DNA from: a virus
Virus record (IMG/VR): IMGVR_UViG_3300006802_012847
Coordinates: 36,319-100,318 of that record
DNA length: 64,000 nt
Strand: one strand, 5' to 3'
Below, piece by piece: positions 31,281 to 38,089 of this stretch. A model generated the notes under the pieces. The model was not told the origin of the DNA. It worked only from the letters and a program-made list of their open reading frames with translations, and did not search any database. The position numbers and the translations under genes are program-made. How positions within the stretch are numbered: position 1 is the first letter of the stretch; every line of letters starts with the position of its first letter.

Positions 31281-32444
31281 ATGATAAATACTAAGTATAA
31301 AATATATCTCGACATGGATGGTGTTATTGCTGATTGGGAAGGTCAGTTCAAGAAAAAATTTGGATATCCAGTTGAGGCATTTGATAGTCGTTTCGGTAAA
31401 GAAAAAAGACAGAAGTTAGTTCAACAGAATAGTCCTTTGTTTTATGAAAATATGCCATGGACTAAAGATGGTAAGATATTATTCAATTTTCTAAAACAAT
31501 TTCCTACAGAGATACTCAGTCATTCTACGGACGACCAATGTAAACAAGGAAAACAAACTTGGTTACAGAATAAGAATATTAATCTAACGCAACATTTAGT
31601 TGACAATAGACAAGATAAAGCTAAGTATGCTGGAAAAGATACTATTCTTATCGATGATAGAGAAGATAATATTGCTGAATTTCAAAATGCTGGTGGTATT
31701 GGCATTCTACATAAAAATTCAACGGATACAATTAATAAGCTGAAAGAAATATTAGGAGTAAAACAATCTCATAGAATTTATAATAGTATATTAAATCCAG
31801 AGTTATTCAATAATGATATTTTAAAACCAGAAGTGGTTGAACAATTATATAAAATTGCTAGAGAGTTTTATAAAGAAACAGAATTGGAAGTACCGATTGA
31901 AGATATTGTTTTATTAGGTAGTTCAGCAGGTTATAATTGGACTCCTACTAGTGATCTAGACTTGCATATAATTATAGATTTTAGTAAAATAGACGAAAAT
32001 ACTGACTTAGTTAAAAAAGCAGTTGATGGATATAAAAATAAATGGAATAATTTTCATGACATATACATCAACGAACATCCGGTAGAACTATACATTCAAG
32101 ACATTAATGAAGAAAATAAAAGTCAAGCAGTTTACAGTATTACTAAAAATGAATGGATCACTAAGCCGAAGTATGAATCGCCTAATATAGATAAAATAGC
32201 AATTAAAAGAAAGTATAAAGAATTAAAAGATCTCATTGATCGTTCTGTAACTGAATCCAACATTGAGAATCTTAAAAGTTTAGTTCGAAGAATTTACAAT
32301 ATGAGAGAAGCTGGACTAAGTTCCGGCGGAGAATATAGTACAGAAAATCTCGTATTCAAGCTATTGAGAAGTAATGGTTATATTGATAAAGTCCGTGATT
32401 CCATTATAAATTTAACGGATAAACAACTATCTAGCAGAGTATAA
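31281..32444 (+). CDS. HAD phosphatase (5'-nucleotidase-like) fused to pol-beta-type nucleotidyltransferase
   Basis: 387 residues, two domains. Residues ~5-160 form a HAD-fold phosphatase: YLDMDGVIADW (D11, D13 nucleophile pair), ILSHST and TILIDDREDNIAEFQNAGG, as in 5'(3')-deoxyribonucleotidases. Residues ~180-387 form a nucleotidyltransferase: LLGSSAGYNWTPTSDLDLHI, with GSS at 213-215 and the metal-binding D225/D227 pair. The fusion suggests linked phosphate removal and nucleotide transfer, for example end repair or tRNA/nucleotide modification, but the substrate is unknown. It precedes the tail tube gene in its own unit. Confidence 0.8.
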   Translation: MINTKYKIYLDMDGVIADWEGQFKKKFGYPVEAFDSRFGKEKRQKLVQQNSPLFYENMPWTKDGKILFNFLKQFPTEILSHSTDDQCKQGKQTWLQNKNINLTQHLVDNRQDKAKYAGKDTILIDDREDNIAEFQNAGGIGILHKNSTDTINKLKEILGVKQSHRIYNSILNPELFNNDILKPEVVEQLYKIAREFYKETELEVPIEDIVLLGSSAGYNWTPTSDLDLHIIIDFSKIDENTDLVKKAVDGYKNKWNNFHDIYINEHPVELYIQDINEENKSQAVYSITKNEWITKPKYESPNIDKIAIKRKYKELKDLIDRSVTESNIENLKSLVRRIYNMREAGLSSGGEYSTENLVFKLLRSNGYIDKVRDSIINLTDKQLSSRV

Positions 32445-33581: not shown

Positions 33582-33743
33582 ATGTTTTACAAACAATCAA
33601 AACAAACTAAAATGTCAGACGAAAAAATTAAATTAAATTATATAGAAAAAGATATTCAGAAACATCAAAGTTTATTAGAAGATTTACAATATAAATCTAT
33701 AAAAAGAGATGCTTTGGAAGATTTAGAATCGTATGCAAAATAA
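33582..33743 (+). CDS. short coiled-coil hypothetical protein (53 aa)
   Basis: ATG 33582 to TAA 33743; a second in-frame ATG at 33612 is possible. The product is helical with heptads (IEKDIQKHQSLLEDLQYK). It overlaps the start of the NMNAT-like gene (ATG 33733) by 11 nt, suggesting coupled translation. Confidence 0.55.
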   Translation: MFYKQSKQTKMSDEKIKLNYIEKDIQKHQSLLEDLQYKSIKRDALEDLESYAK

Positions 33744-34524
33744 TATAACAGTATTAATGCCTGGTGGATTTAAACCACCTCATGATGGTCACTTATCATT
33801 AGCTAATAAATTTGCTTCTAGAAGTGATGTTGATAAGGTATTAGTAATGGTTGGACCAACAGAACGTGAAGGTATAAACAGAAAACAAAGTCTTGCTATT
33901 TGGAATGCTTTGCCAAAAAATCCAAAAGTAAAAGTTATACCTGTTTCTGAAGATAATCCAATGACAGCAGCGTTTAAATATGTGTTTAATCTTCCAAAGG
34001 ATAGTACAGAAACTATCGCACTGGGTTCTAGTTCTAAAGACCCAGATGATGCTAAAAGAGCTAAGATATTTAGATTGGCAATTGAAAAATATAAAAATAC
34101 TCCCAGCAAAAATGGAGAAACAGCTCCGCCAAATATAGTTGTCACAGATTTAACAGATGATGTTTACAGTGTATACAAGAATAGAACAGATGATTTAAAC
34201 GGATCGAGTATAAGTGCTACAACTCTTAGAAACGATTTAAAAAACAATGATTTTAATAATTTTAAAACTAATTATCCTAATATAGATGAAAGAACTGTTA
34301 AAAAGATTTTTCACATTTTAAAAGGTACTACTATGAACGAATTGAAAAAACAAAGATATATGGCTATCATTAAAGAAATGTTAAAAGAAGAAGATGATAG
34401 TTTTATGAACGCAATATTGGGGTCAGAGAAAGATTATAAAACCACCTTGGATAAAATAAATAAACGTGCTTCTGAATTAACAAAAGCTGCTCATGATGCT
34501 AAATCTAAAGCAGTTCCAAAGTGA
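33733..34524 (+). CDS. nucleotidylyltransferase-superfamily protein (NMNAT-like)
   Basis: 263 residues. MPGGFKPPHDGHLSLANKF has the HxGH motif (HDGH, 17-20) of the nucleotidyltransferase alpha/beta phosphodiesterase superfamily, and SSISATTLRNDL (~159-169) is the matching ISxTxxR motif. Such enzymes attach AMP or CMP to substrates such as NMN. The C-terminal ~65 residues (from Met200ish, MNELKKQRYMAIIKEMLKE) are helical and could be a second domain or a separately initiated product. A role in NAD metabolism or virion nucleotide modification is possible but not shown. Confidence 0.75.
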   Translation: MQNNITVLMPGGFKPPHDGHLSLANKFASRSDVDKVLVMVGPTEREGINRKQSLAIWNALPKNPKVKVIPVSEDNPMTAAFKYVFNLPKDSTETIALGSSSKDPDDAKRAKIFRLAIEKYKNTPSKNGETAPPNIVVTDLTDDVYSVYKNRTDDLNGSSISATTLRNDLKNNDFNNFKTNYPNIDERTVKKIFHILKGTTMNELKKQRYMAIIKEMLKEEDDSFMNAILGSEKDYKTTLDKINKRASELTKAAHDAKSKAVPK

Positions 34525-34575: not shown

Positions 34576-35391
34576 ATGAGTAACGAAGAAATTGTTTTAC
34601 AAAGAAGTGTACCTGAATTATCTACACAATCTCCAAAATATCCTACGGAAAAAATTGATTTACCAAGTAAAGGATATTTTTATCAAAGCAATAGTCCTTT
34701 GAGTTCTGGCGCAGTAGAACTAAAGATGATGACAGCAAAAGAAGAAGATATTCTAACTAGTCAAAATCTTATTAAAAAAGGAGTGGTTTTAGATAAACTA
34801 CTGGAAAGCTTGATTGTTACTCCAAACGTATCTGTGTCAGATTTACTCATATGTGACAAAAATGCTTTGTTTGTAGCAGCTAGACGACTTGCGTATGGTG
34901 ATAATTATGGTCCTTTACAAATAAAATGTCCACAATGTACTGAAGAATCTAAAGAAACTATTAATTTAAGTCTTTTAACTGATAAAGACGTAGACTTCTC
35001 TGGTTTTGAAAAAGGTCAAAATGTTTTTGAATTTGAATTACCTTACTCTAAAAAACTTATTCGTTTTAGGTTATTAACTTCTAAAGATGAAGATGAAATC
35101 GACGTAGAAGTAAAATCTGTTTCTAAGTTTTTAAAATCCGGTGGAAGTGCTGAAGTAACAACCAGATTAAAGAAATTAATTATAAGTATAGATGGAGATT
35201 CAGATAGGTCAAAAATCAATAAATTTGTAGATACAGAGCTACTTTCGAGAGATAGTTCAGCATTACGTACCTTTGTTAGAAAAGTGGCTCCTGAGCTAGA
35301 TTTGTCCTTTAATTTCACGTGTCCAAATTGCGCTCATGAAGAAAGGATGGATGTACCGATGACGGTACAGTTTTTTTGGCCTGAGTCTTGA
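34576..35391 (+). CDS. baseplate hub/tail assembly protein (T4 gp26-like), first tail chaperone
   Basis: 271 residues of the T4_baseplate family: PTEKIDLPSKGYFY, VELKMMTAKEEDILTSQNLI, LLICDKNALFVAARRLAYGD, with two Cys pairs (CPQC and CPNC) that can bind zinc, ending in VPMTVQFFWPES. It sits two ORFs before the tape measure gene, where tail assembly chaperones are encoded. The final codons contain a seven-T run (35371-35377) and overlap a second open frame that lacks a start codon, suggesting a frameshifted longer product. Confidence 0.85.
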   Translation: MSNEEIVLQRSVPELSTQSPKYPTEKIDLPSKGYFYQSNSPLSSGAVELKMMTAKEEDILTSQNLIKKGVVLDKLLESLIVTPNVSVSDLLICDKNALFVAARRLAYGDNYGPLQIKCPQCTEESKETINLSLLTDKDVDFSGFEKGQNVFEFELPYSKKLIRFRLLTSKDEDEIDVEVKSVSKFLKSGGSAEVTTRLKKLIISIDGDSDRSKINKFVDTELLSRDSSALRTFVRKVAPELDLSFNFTCPNCAHEERMDVPMTVQFFWPES

Positions 35392-35608
35392 GTATAAGGT
35401 ATCACTCCACAAACAAATATTCGAACTGTCTTATTTTTCTAATGGGGCATTAAATGTTGATATTGCGTATAACCTCCCAATATATCTTCGTAATTTTTAT
35501 TATAAAACTTTGTTAGAGATAAAACAAAAGGAAAGTAAATCTTATGAAGATGCTACAAAAAAACCTTCCAAAAATACTAACAAACCAAGGGTAGATAAAC
35601 CGTTTTAA
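35390..35608 (+). CDS. second tail-assembly frame without a start codon (probable frameshift extension)
   Basis: The frame is open from 35363 to the TAA at 35606-35608. Coding-like sequence starts at the upstream gene's stop: EYKVSLHKQIFELSYFSNG, then VDIAYNLPIYLRNFYYK and a Lys-rich tail. No ATG, GTG or TTG occurs before residue ~39 of it. It is in the +1 frame relative to the gp26-like gene and overlaps it across TTTTTTT (35371-35377) and TCTTGAG at the stop. Expression most simply requires a +1 or -2 shift, as for tail chaperone pairs upstream of tape measure genes. Confidence 0.6.
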   Translation, partial: EYKVSLHKQIFELSYFSNGALNVDIAYNLPIYLRNFYYKTLLEIKQKESKSYEDATKKPSKNTNKPRVDKPF

Positions 35609-35647: not shown

Positions 35648-38089
35648 ATGGCAAATTCTATCCGACAATCAGAACTCGATAGACTCAAAAATTCTATTAG
35701 GGACATGACAGACTTATCTAGGTCTGTTCGTAATACATTCGACGAGATCAATTCAGTAACAGGCGATACAGCGGATAAATTTAAAACTATTGTAGATAAT
35801 GCTAAACAAAATGCAAATCTTGTTGAAAGATATCTTATAAGTCAACAACTCACCAAAAAAATACAATCGCAGATAAATGAATTTAAATCTAAGTCTGGTT
35901 ATTTAGATAGATCACAGCTAGAATTTAGAAAGAGCGAACTTTTATTACAAAAGAAAATTGCAACTGCTCAGATTAGTAGACTATTAAATTCTCAATTAGA
36001 TAATGATGCTAAAGAACAAGCAATTAATGCCATCAAGACAAGAATGATGATGGAGAGTGCTGAGTTAGACATATTAGAAAAACAAGTAGACACTCAGAAT
36101 GATATTGTAAGAGCATTAGAAGATCAACTCACAGCAGCTCAAAAATTAGGAGAAGTTACTATAGAACAAGACAATTTATTTGACCAAGGAAAAAATAAAT
36201 TACTTGATTGGTATAACAAATTTAAAAATATTAATGTTTTACAAAAAGGCATAGCGATAGCGACTACAACATTTGTAGCAATTATTAAAAAAGGATATGA
36301 AAACTTTCTAGCATTTGATACAGCTGCAACTAGTGTTAGACAGACCCTTGGATTTTTCCCAGGCGAGATGGATGCGTTGAGAGGTACTATAAAAAATGTT
36401 ACTTTTGATCTCATGGACATGGGTGCAACATTTGATGATGTTGCAAAATCCGTAACAGCTATCGCATCGGAAATAAATGGAATTGTTGCCCAAGACAAGG
36501 AGTTACTAACTACCGTAACCGCTCTGGCAAAAAACTTTGGAATATCAGAAGCTACATCTGCAAAGTTTTTAAAAACCATGGGTGGTGTGAGTAATCAAAC
36601 TGCTAAATCTCAAACAGCGATGATAGGATTTAGTAAAAACTTAGCAAAAGCATCTGGAGTTCCATTAGATCAATTGATGAAAGATGTAGCTGATGCTGGT
36701 GATAATGCTAGAATATATGCAGGTCGTACCGCAGTTGAATTAGTTAAAGCAGCGGCTGGTGCTAGAATGTTGGGAACTAATTTAGAATCAGCCGCAAAAT
36801 CAGCGGATCAGTTATTAAATTTTGAAAGTAGTATTAACTCCGAATTAAAAGCAAGTGCTCTATTAGGAAGAAATATAGATTTCAATCGTGCTCGTCAATT
36901 AGCATTTAGCAAAGATATTTTAGGATCAGAAAAAGAAATTTTACGTATAACAAAAGGTATTAAATTTAATGAACTGAATCCAATACAACAAAAAGCATAT
37001 GCTGAAGCAGCTGGTAAAACCGTTGGTGAATTACAAGACATGCTTCAAGCAGAAAAGAATATGCAACTTCTTCGTGAATCTGGTACTCAAGAACAAAGAG
37101 ATTTGATTAATGAGTATGATAGATTGATGCAAATGAAAGAGGAACAAGCACAGAGTGAAGGAGAAATTGCTGAACAACAAATCAAACAAAGATTGAATCA
37201 AGAAAGAATGGCTCAACTTCAAAATAAATTTAATAAATTAATATCTGAGCTAGCCGGACCAGTTATGGATTTTGTTGAACCACTGTTAGATTTAGCTATT
37301 AAGATTTTTCCTGGACTTGTAGCGGGAATGAAAATTTTTAGCAATGCTGTACTCTTTGTTACTGGTCTCGAACTATGGAAAATGATTCCTAAAGCTATAG
37401 GTGTATTTTCTAGATTTTTCAGTGGAGGTGCTGGATTTGTCAAATCGCTTGGGGCTGCAACTGTATCGATGTCAAATTCATTTGGTATATTTGTCAAGGG
37501 CCTTAGTTTCATAGGTAAATTACTTGGACCAATTGGTTTAGTAATAAGTGCTTTTTCTTTAATAGGAAACTTAATGAAAAGATGGCAAGAAGCTCCAGAT
37601 GGTATCTTAGGAGGTTTCGAAGCGATAGCAGGGGCTTTGTATGATACTTTCTTAAAACCTTTCGTGGATGCGTATGATTGGATAGCCGGTATGTTTGTCG
37701 GCAAATCCCCATCAAAATTAGCACTTGGAATATTAAAAGGAATTCAGTCAGTTGCTGGACTCATACTAGATGCTTTAACATTGCCATTCAGATTATTCTG
37801 GAACAACACAGTTGCTAAGATACCTGGCGTACCAGCATTAGGTGCTCCTAGTGAAGCGTTAGGATTGGGTGGTGCTGGTGGCGAATCTGGTGAAGGATCT
37901 ATAGGAGGAAACGATAAATTAATGGAAGTAATTTCCACTGGCAATCAACAAATAGTAAATAAAATTGATGAATTAATAACCGCACTAGGTAATGGTGGTA
38001 TTGGTGTTAATTTAGATGGTGTCAAAGTTAACTATGCTCTTGCTAAATCAGCTGTAACAAGAGGGAGTTTTGGACAAGCAACATTCTAA
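35648..38089 (+). CDS. tail tape measure protein
   Basis: 813 residues. The N-terminal ~180 residues are coiled coil (TKKIQSQINEFKSK). A central domain has the SVRQTLGFFPGEMDALRGTI and TAIASEINGIVAQDKELLTT regions seen in phage tail length proteins. The C-terminal part has hydrophobic stretches (LLGPIGLVISAFSLIGNLMK, LALGILKGIQSVAGLILDAL) that can enter the host membrane, then a Gly-rich tail. Follows the chaperone pair and precedes baseplate genes, as tape measure genes do. It sets tail length and may form the DNA passage. Confidence 0.8.
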   Translation: MANSIRQSELDRLKNSIRDMTDLSRSVRNTFDEINSVTGDTADKFKTIVDNAKQNANLVERYLISQQLTKKIQSQINEFKSKSGYLDRSQLEFRKSELLLQKKIATAQISRLLNSQLDNDAKEQAINAIKTRMMMESAELDILEKQVDTQNDIVRALEDQLTAAQKLGEVTIEQDNLFDQGKNKLLDWYNKFKNINVLQKGIAIATTTFVAIIKKGYENFLAFDTAATSVRQTLGFFPGEMDALRGTIKNVTFDLMDMGATFDDVAKSVTAIASEINGIVAQDKELLTTVTALAKNFGISEATSAKFLKTMGGVSNQTAKSQTAMIGFSKNLAKASGVPLDQLMKDVADAGDNARIYAGRTAVELVKAAAGARMLGTNLESAAKSADQLLNFESSINSELKASALLGRNIDFNRARQLAFSKDILGSEKEILRITKGIKFNELNPIQQKAYAEAAGKTVGELQDMLQAEKNMQLLRESGTQEQRDLINEYDRLMQMKEEQAQSEGEIAEQQIKQRLNQERMAQLQNKFNKLISELAGPVMDFVEPLLDLAIKIFPGLVAGMKIFSNAVLFVTGLELWKMIPKAIGVFSRFFSGGAGFVKSLGAATVSMSNSFGIFVKGLSFIGKLLGPIGLVISAFSLIGNLMKRWQEAPDGILGGFEAIAGALYDTFLKPFVDAYDWIAGMFVGKSPSKLALGILKGIQSVAGLILDALTLPFRLFWNNTVAKIPGVPALGAPSEALGLGGAGGESGEGSIGGNDKLMEVISTGNQQIVNKIDELITALGNGGIGVNLDGVKVNYALAKSAVTRGSFGQATF

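What the first reader, a model, noticed from the sequence alone, without database searches (positions are those of the whole stretch)
35363..35608. Start-less second frame before the tape measure gene: probable +1/-2 frameshift chaperone
A 72-residue conserved-looking frame begins exactly at the gp26-like gene's stop and lacks any usual start codon. The overlap has seven T (35371-35377) in CAG TTT TTT TGG, and the stop context TCT TGA G, which allows a +1 slip to CTT GAG. Tail assembly chaperones upstream of tape measure genes are classically made by frameshifting (-1 in lambda, predicted -2 in Mu). This would be the T4-like counterpart.
Basis: partly seen in the sequence, partly recalled or inferred. 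Interest (0 to 1): 0.7.

Follow-up and report, generated by a model that had tools for sequence, protein, structure and literature searches.

The report
+1 frameshift makes tail chaperone's long form
A T4-like virus gene for a tail-building helper protein carries a conserved slip signal that should make some ribosomes skip one base and add an extra domain, so that one gene yields the short and long helpers which phage T4 makes from two separate genes.

Summary
The gp26-like gene (34576-35391, PF12322) is overlapped by a +1 frame (35363-35608) with no usable start codon; the tape measure gene follows.

Of 268 distinct junctions from related viruses, all 188 of the +1 type carry a YUU codon followed by U or C near the gene's end (UUU_U in 179). 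The second frame is under protein-level selection only in the +1 phase. The 0-frame stop varies in type and position, so the slip is at UUU_U (35374-35377), not at UCU UGA. UUC UUU and CUU_U variants argue against a -2 shift and transcriptional slippage.

The short form is homologous to T4 gp26 and gp51; its N-terminal domain most resembles HK97 and YqbN tail chaperone structures (moderate scores). The added domain links to the T4 gp51 C-terminus through cyanophage "gp51" frames, reached by -1 shifting at U_UUU_UUC. T4-type phages instead carry two gene copies.

T4-like chaperones, and frameshifting in some T4-like groups, were published in 2022. What looks new is a large, mostly uncultured +1 clade in which the Phe codon used tracks shift direction. 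All evidence is comparative; nothing has been measured.

The parts
34576..35391 (+). gp26-like gene: short form of the tail assembly chaperone, 271 aa
   Evidence: PF12322 1.3e-14; phrog_150 baseplate hub 3.9e-18; single PF12322 copy in the record
35371..35377 (+). T7 run; slip site TTT_T is 35374-35377 (P-site codon 35374-35376, skipped base 35377), A-site codon TGG
   Evidence: YTT followed by T or C in 188 of 188 unique +1 junctions; slip-codon Phe 0 TTC in 104 representatives
35363..35608 (+). open +1 frame overlapping the gp26-like gene; translated part starts at 35378 (GGC) after the shift
   Evidence: dN/dS-like ratio 0.05 in this frame, above 1 in the others
35378..35605 (+). C-terminal domain of the long form (76 aa); fusion total 343 aa
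   Evidence: translation through the shift; homologous to cyanophage -1 'gp51' frames; phrog_634 hits in 3 of 44 relatives
35389..35391 (+). 0-frame stop TGA ending the short form; type and position not conserved
   Evidence: TGA 90, TAA 72, TAG 26 among 188 junctions
35648..38089 (+). probable tape measure protein, 813 aa, presumed client of the chaperone
   Evidence: BLASTP 5e-17 to the annotated tape measure protein of Flavobacterium phage immuto
32533..33024 (+). tail tube protein (gp19-like), 163 aa
   Evidence: phrog_4542 tail tube 2.2e-24, PF06841 1.1e-4, below its curated cut-off

Best explanation
[quoted passage not shown] Most ribosomes read the gp26-like gene to its stop and make the short chaperone (271 aa). 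A fraction, with UUU in the P site and UGG waiting in the A site, slip one base forward (UUU_U, 35374-35377) and continue in the +1 frame, making a 343-aa long form with a helical C-terminal domain. By analogy with lambda gpG/gpGT, many short and a few long forms would coat the tape measure protein, and the added domain would recruit tail tube subunits. Shown here by comparative sequence: the conserved overlap, the conserved slip site, the phase in which the second frame is under selection, and homology of the short form to T4 gp26/gp51. Inferred: that the shift happens, how often, and the chaperone role.
For: 188 of 188 unique +1 junctions have YTT followed by T or C in the overlap, TTT_T in 179. 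Slip-codon Phe is never TTC in 104 representatives below 75% identity, against 6-33% at six other conserved Phe columns. The fastest-changing codon position switches from the 0 frame to the +1 frame at the site; dN/dS-like ratio 0.05 in +1 versus 1.35 and 2.65 in the other frames. The 0-frame stop varies. Cultured isolates (Flavobacterium immuto, Microcystis Mel-JY01, SP-15, LIS04, GXN1) share the anatomy. Short form matches PF12322, as do both T4 gp26 and gp51. Its best solved-structure matches are YqbN and HK97 tail assembly chaperone (Z 5.6 and 5.4). Records with the overlap carry one PF12322 copy, T4-type records two. Tape measure gene directly downstream.
Against: No protein or reporter data. 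No conserved RNA structure or other stimulator was found, and UGG is not rarer than GGC in the window, so what makes the shift efficient is unknown. Structure scores are moderate. Direct similarity of the added domain to T4 gp51 is weak and runs through the -1 relatives. One relative inside the clade (L243) does not fit.
Confidence: 0.88

Rival explanations
1. The second frame is a separate small gene, translated by termination-reinitiation or from a non-canonical start codon, as annotated for cyanophage and KVP40 gp51.
For: KVP40 has TAATG at the stop, most of the cyanophage loci an ATG 5 nt after the start of the stop codon; huge phage LR756511 (L087) has TAATGG. Coupled reinitiation is common in phages.
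Against: In the +1 clade no start codon is conserved: 159 of 188 junctions have none in the first ten codons after the slip, and CTG at 35381 becomes CTA or CTT in relatives. Residues before the 0-frame stop are conserved in the +1 phase, and the slip-codon wobble base is fixed, which reinitiation does not require. In T4 gp51 the domain is fused to a full gp26-like part.
Confidence: 0.07
2. The +1 frame is reached by a -2 ribosomal slip on the T run, as known for phage Mu.
For: The window's T7 run would allow re-pairing two bases back; -2 and +1 lead to the same frame.
Against: Relatives with TTC TTT TGG (6), TTT CTT TGG (5) or TTT followed by C (4) re-pair after +1 but poorly or not at all after -2.
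Confidence: 0.03
3. Transcriptional slippage on the T run yields some mRNAs with a changed number of U.
For: The site is a homopolymer run in an AT-rich genome.
Against: The run is only T7 and is interrupted in relatives that keep the overlap (TTCTTTT, TTTCTTT, TTTCGT). Reading and length limits of polymerase slippage are from general knowledge.
Confidence: 0.015
4. The broken frame is an assembly or sequencing indel in the T run.
For: Homopolymers attract errors.
Against: The same +1 arrangement is in 188 distinct junctions from independent assemblies and in cultured isolates.
Confidence: 0.005

Closest known systems
T4 gp26 and gp51, reported as the tail assembly chaperones of T4-like phages (Vladimirov, Gautam and Davidson 2022, Virology 566:9-15; text not held, known through PMC10885494 and PMC12846349)
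   Same: Same protein family PF12322; a short form and a long form with extra C-terminal domain; same neighbourhood of tail genes
   Different: T4 encodes the two forms by two genes; here one gene plus a +1 frameshift would give both
Cyanophage, KVP40 and Atu_ph07 gp26 with small gp51 frame (U_UUU_UUC, -1)
   Same: Same gene, same Phe-Phe position near the end, homologous added domain
   Different: Direction -1 with TTC as the second Phe codon; +1 with TTT in the window clade
Lambda gpG/gpGT (-1) and Mu (-2) tail assembly chaperones, review PMC5009743
   Same: Short and long chaperone from one gene just upstream of the tape measure gene, by low-frequency frameshifting
   Different: Different direction and protein family; role in this virus inferred
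Haloarchaeal myovirus HSTV-2 tail gene, very likely +1 (review PMC5009743)
   Same: Predicted +1 frameshift in a myovirus tail chaperone gene
   Different: Archaeal virus; site not compared here
prfB (CUU_UGA) and influenza PA-X (UCC_UUU_CGU) +1 sites
   Same: P-site YUU slips one base onto U or C
   Different: prfB has a stop codon in the A site; here it is UGG or UAC. Streptococcus phage GXN1 has UUC UUU CGU C, close to the PA-X motif

Membership tests
PF12322 T4_baseplate (gp26/gp51 family) | Score above the curated cut-off over most of the profile | tested here: met
   54.8 bits against 24.5, profile 9-219 of 219; 41 of 46 relatives match
Tail assembly chaperone, short/long type | Gene directly upstream of the tape measure gene | tested here: met
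   35648-38089 homologous to an annotated tape measure protein
[quoted passage not shown]
Tail assembly chaperone, short/long type | Fold of the short form as in HK97 gp13 | tested here: inconclusive
   Top rows YqbN Z 5.6 and HK97 chaperone Z 5.4, rmsd 3.8 and 2.9 over 84 and 73 residues; such Z values can be a common arrangement
Tail assembly chaperone, short/long type | Both products made, bind the tape measure protein and are absent from the mature virion | not testable with these tools
   Needs proteomics and binding assays
T4 gp51 C-terminal domain | Sequence homology of the added domain to the gp51 C-terminus | tested here: inconclusive
   Direct HHalign E 0.013 only; through -1 domains 95.9 and 95.2 probability; phrog_634 in 3 of 44 members, best 4.7e-4
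prfB-type +1 site | Stop codon in the A site at the shift | tested here: not met
   A-site codon is UGG or UAC in nearly all; 0-frame stop mostly 12 or 18 nt further on, of all three types
Mu-type -2 site | P-site tRNA can re-pair two bases back in the conserved site | tested here: not met
   TTC TTT, CTT_T and TTT_C variants
Canonical -1 heptamer frameshift (T4-like cyanophage type) | X_XXY_YYZ heptamer and second domain in the -1 frame | tested here: not met
   Second domain is in +1 in the window and its clade

The most novel reading that the evidence does not exclude
A whole clade of T4-like viruses, mostly uncultured and including Flavobacterium, Microcystis, Bacillus, Listeria and Streptococcus phages, makes its long tail chaperone by +1 frameshifting at a sense-codon site (YUU_U, mostly before UGG or UAC) with no stop codon in the A site and no conserved RNA structure. 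Across the family the shift direction follows the synonymous codon used for one conserved Phe (UUU for +1, UUC for -1), and T4's two-gene arrangement arose by duplication from a frameshifting ancestor.
Probability: 0.5. Interest if true: 0.6.

Novelty: new variant of a known kind. Interest (0 to 1): 0.45.

Why it matters
Tail chaperone frameshifting was described as conserved in long-tailed phages 'except T4' (PMC5009743); later work found the T4-like chaperones and some frameshifting groups. This adds a +1 branch of the family and a simple codon pattern that goes with direction. It offers a reason why cyanophage gp51 looks ~200 residues too short, noted without a mechanism in 2010 (PMC3037559): the missing part would be gp26, read before the shift. 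Many annotated genomes then lack the long form or list a small gene that may not exist on its own. It also supplies a natural +1 site at sense codons, an uncommon class, for mechanistic study.

Tried and rejected
The hairpin GTACCG-ATGA-CGGTAC just 5' of the T run looked like a stimulator, but RNAalifold finds no pairs across 31 diverse relatives, and the downstream 93 nt fold no better than shuffles (z 0.18). CTG at 35381 as a start codon was rejected because relatives have CTA or CTT there. Rarity of the A-site codon does not explain the shift: TGG (10.5 per 1000) is not rarer than the +1 codon GGC (7.0) in the window. Sequence searches of solved structures gave only chance hits, and the added domain had no convincing solved match. 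Scans seeded with KVP40 and SP-15 gp26 returned almost nothing new. Vladimirov et al. 2022 is not held, so whether it already describes +1 sites could not be checked; a last paper search for +1 sites in flavobacterial phages found none.

Full report
What is there. The gp26-like ORF runs 34576-35391 (271 aa) and ends CAG TTT TTT TGG CCT GAG TCT TGA. The +1 frame is open 35363-35608 and holds no ATG, GTG or TTG before an internal TTG at 35510. The next gene, 35648-38089, is homologous (5e-17) to the annotated tape measure protein of Flavobacterium phage immuto. The window lies in a 100,318-base viral record. The ORF matches PF12322 T4_baseplate and phrog_150 baseplate hub.

Relatives. Eighty IMG/VR contigs at 54-100% identity keep the +1 overlap. 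Further scans and annotated isolates gave 355 loci with a readable gp26 stop. In every one the second frame is open across the gp26 stop: 249 in +1 and 91 in -1, or 188 and 80 unique junctions.

The slip site. In 188 of 188 unique +1 junctions a YTT codon followed by T or C lies in the overlap: TTT_T 179, CTT_T 5, TTT_C 4. The commonest contexts are TTT TTT TGG (128), TTT TTT TAC (38), TTC TTT TGG (6) and TTT CTT TGG (5). TTC TTT and CTT_T variants re-pair after a +1 slip but not after -2, and have too few T in a row for transcriptional slippage. In 108 representatives below 75% identity the slip-codon Phe column has 0 TTC among 104, against 6-33% TTC at six other conserved Phe columns. Because the site search looked for YTT, the column test is the independent check.

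Reading phase. In 351 pairs of moderately diverged relatives the fastest-changing position is 0-frame codon position 3 upstream of the site and 0-frame position 1 (= +1-frame position 3) downstream; the nucleotides from -3 to +5 around the slip show no differences in this set of TGG sites. Single-change codons in the second domain give a dN/dS-like ratio of 0.05 in the +1 frame and 1.35 and 2.65 in the other two. This shows protein-level selection in +1 and puts the switch at the T run. Relatedness was handled only by clustering and limits on pairs, so no formal P value is claimed.

T4 and the -1 branch. T4 gp26 and gp51 both match PF12322 over its full length, both match phrog_150 and align to each other (2e-6), so they are paralogues; gp51 has an extra C-terminal stretch. 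P-SSM2, S-SM2, KVP40 and Agrobacterium phage Atu_ph07 end gp26 with T TTT TTC, one codon and a stop, with the small gp51 in the -1 frame. The heptamer is in 78 of 80 unique -1 junctions. Desulfovibrio phage 7757 has a -1 frame with no start codon at all; ACG-2014j has none before the conserved region. Most cyanophages do have an ATG close to the stop, so for them a separate start remains possible. The +1 and -1 second domains are homologous (HHalign probability 95.9), and the -1 domain is homologous to the gp51 C-terminus (95.2). Direct similarity between +1 domains and gp51 is weak, though phrog_634, the gp51 family, matches 3 of 44 +1 members. Copy number fits: PF12322 occurs twice in each of five T4-type genomes and once in the window record and in 14 others; immuto and Mel-JY01 fall below the threshold.

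Evolution. In a protein tree of 76 rows the +1 sequences fall together, apart from the outlier L243 inside them and the -1 Agrobacterium phage at their base; the T4-type duplicated genes form one group among the -1 sequences (support 95/96). The three labels need 3 changes in all. This suggests one main change of direction and one duplication from a frameshifting ancestor. Long branches make details unsure and the root is not known.

Structure. The short form is predicted well (pLDDT 87.8). Its best solved matches are YqbN (Z 5.6) and HK97 tail assembly chaperone (Z 5.4), then a PICI-element protein (4.1). These scores are moderate; that YqbN belongs with phage tail-assembly proteins is from general knowledge. 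Predicted viral structures that match include SP-15 and many T4-like hub proteins. The second domain is a short helical unit.

Mechanism. Likely course: tRNA-Phe on UUU in the P site, UGG (or UAC) slow to be decoded, the P-site tRNA slips onto UUU one base on, and GGC (or ACC) enters. What makes this efficient is unknown: no conserved RNA structure, and UGG is not rarer than GGC in the window. The short form nearly always ends in Phe-Phe-Trp/Tyr-Pro before a variable tail, which leaves room for a nascent-peptide or proline effect (inference only).

Prior work. The review PMC5009743 states that tail chaperone frameshifting is conserved in long-tailed phages except T4, and that -1, -2 and +1 all occur. 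Vladimirov et al. 2022, known here from title and citations, identified T4-like tail chaperones; PMC10885494 reports that some T4-like phages carry a short gene plus a fused long gene, and PMC12846349 cites it for poly-T -1 signals. PMC3037559 noted in 2010 that cyanophage gp51 lacks the first ~200 residues. So the kind of system and the T4 link are known. I found no description of the +1 clade or the Phe codon pattern in the searchable library, but the key paper could not be read.

Verdict. A real, strongly conserved +1 frameshift signal in a tail chaperone gene; a new variant of a known kind, untested at the bench.

Noticed in passing
L177 (Desulfovibrio phage 7757) stop 3218; L183 (ACG-2014j) stop 3212; L184 (AG-345-P14) stop 3212: Gp51-like -1 frames, with no start codon (L177) or none before the conserved region (L183; L184 has only a TTG within it), after T TTT TTC; unannotated in L183, and the other two records have no annotation.
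   Followed up: partly
L243, region of the gp26 stop: Lies inside the +1 clade, yet has TTC TTC TGG and the second domain in the -1 phase; either an indel or a real exception.
   Followed up: partly
L087 (huge phage LR756511) 6817; L178 and L179 (Vibrio phages D531, 207E48.1): Second frame begins with an ATG overlapping the gp26 stop (TAATGG or TAATGA), so a coupled separate start is possible there.
   Followed up: no
L085 (Streptococcus phage GXN1) 6703-6717; L358: Shift-site sequence TTC TTT CGT C / CGG C, close to the influenza PA-X +1 motif.
   Followed up: no
BFVD hits: Hits to short form and added domain come as neighbouring accessions from one phage (Leptospira LE4 A0A343LED6/LED7; G4KKH9/G4KKI0), hinting at the same gene pair in more distant phages; a 48-aa protein of Mu-like phage D108 also appears, weakly.
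   Followed up: no
window 31281-32444: One ORF joins a 5'-3' deoxyribonucleotidase-like N-terminal part to a second part matching phrog_36119 of unknown function.
   Followed up: no
window 33733-34524: ORF starting MQNNITVLMPGGFKPPHDGHLSL looks like a nucleotidyltransferase (by eye only), inserted between tail genes.
   Followed up: no
L363 (RB43) 1201-2494: The two PF12322 copies lie in tandem on one strand, unlike T4, where genes 26 and 51 are divergent.
   Followed up: no
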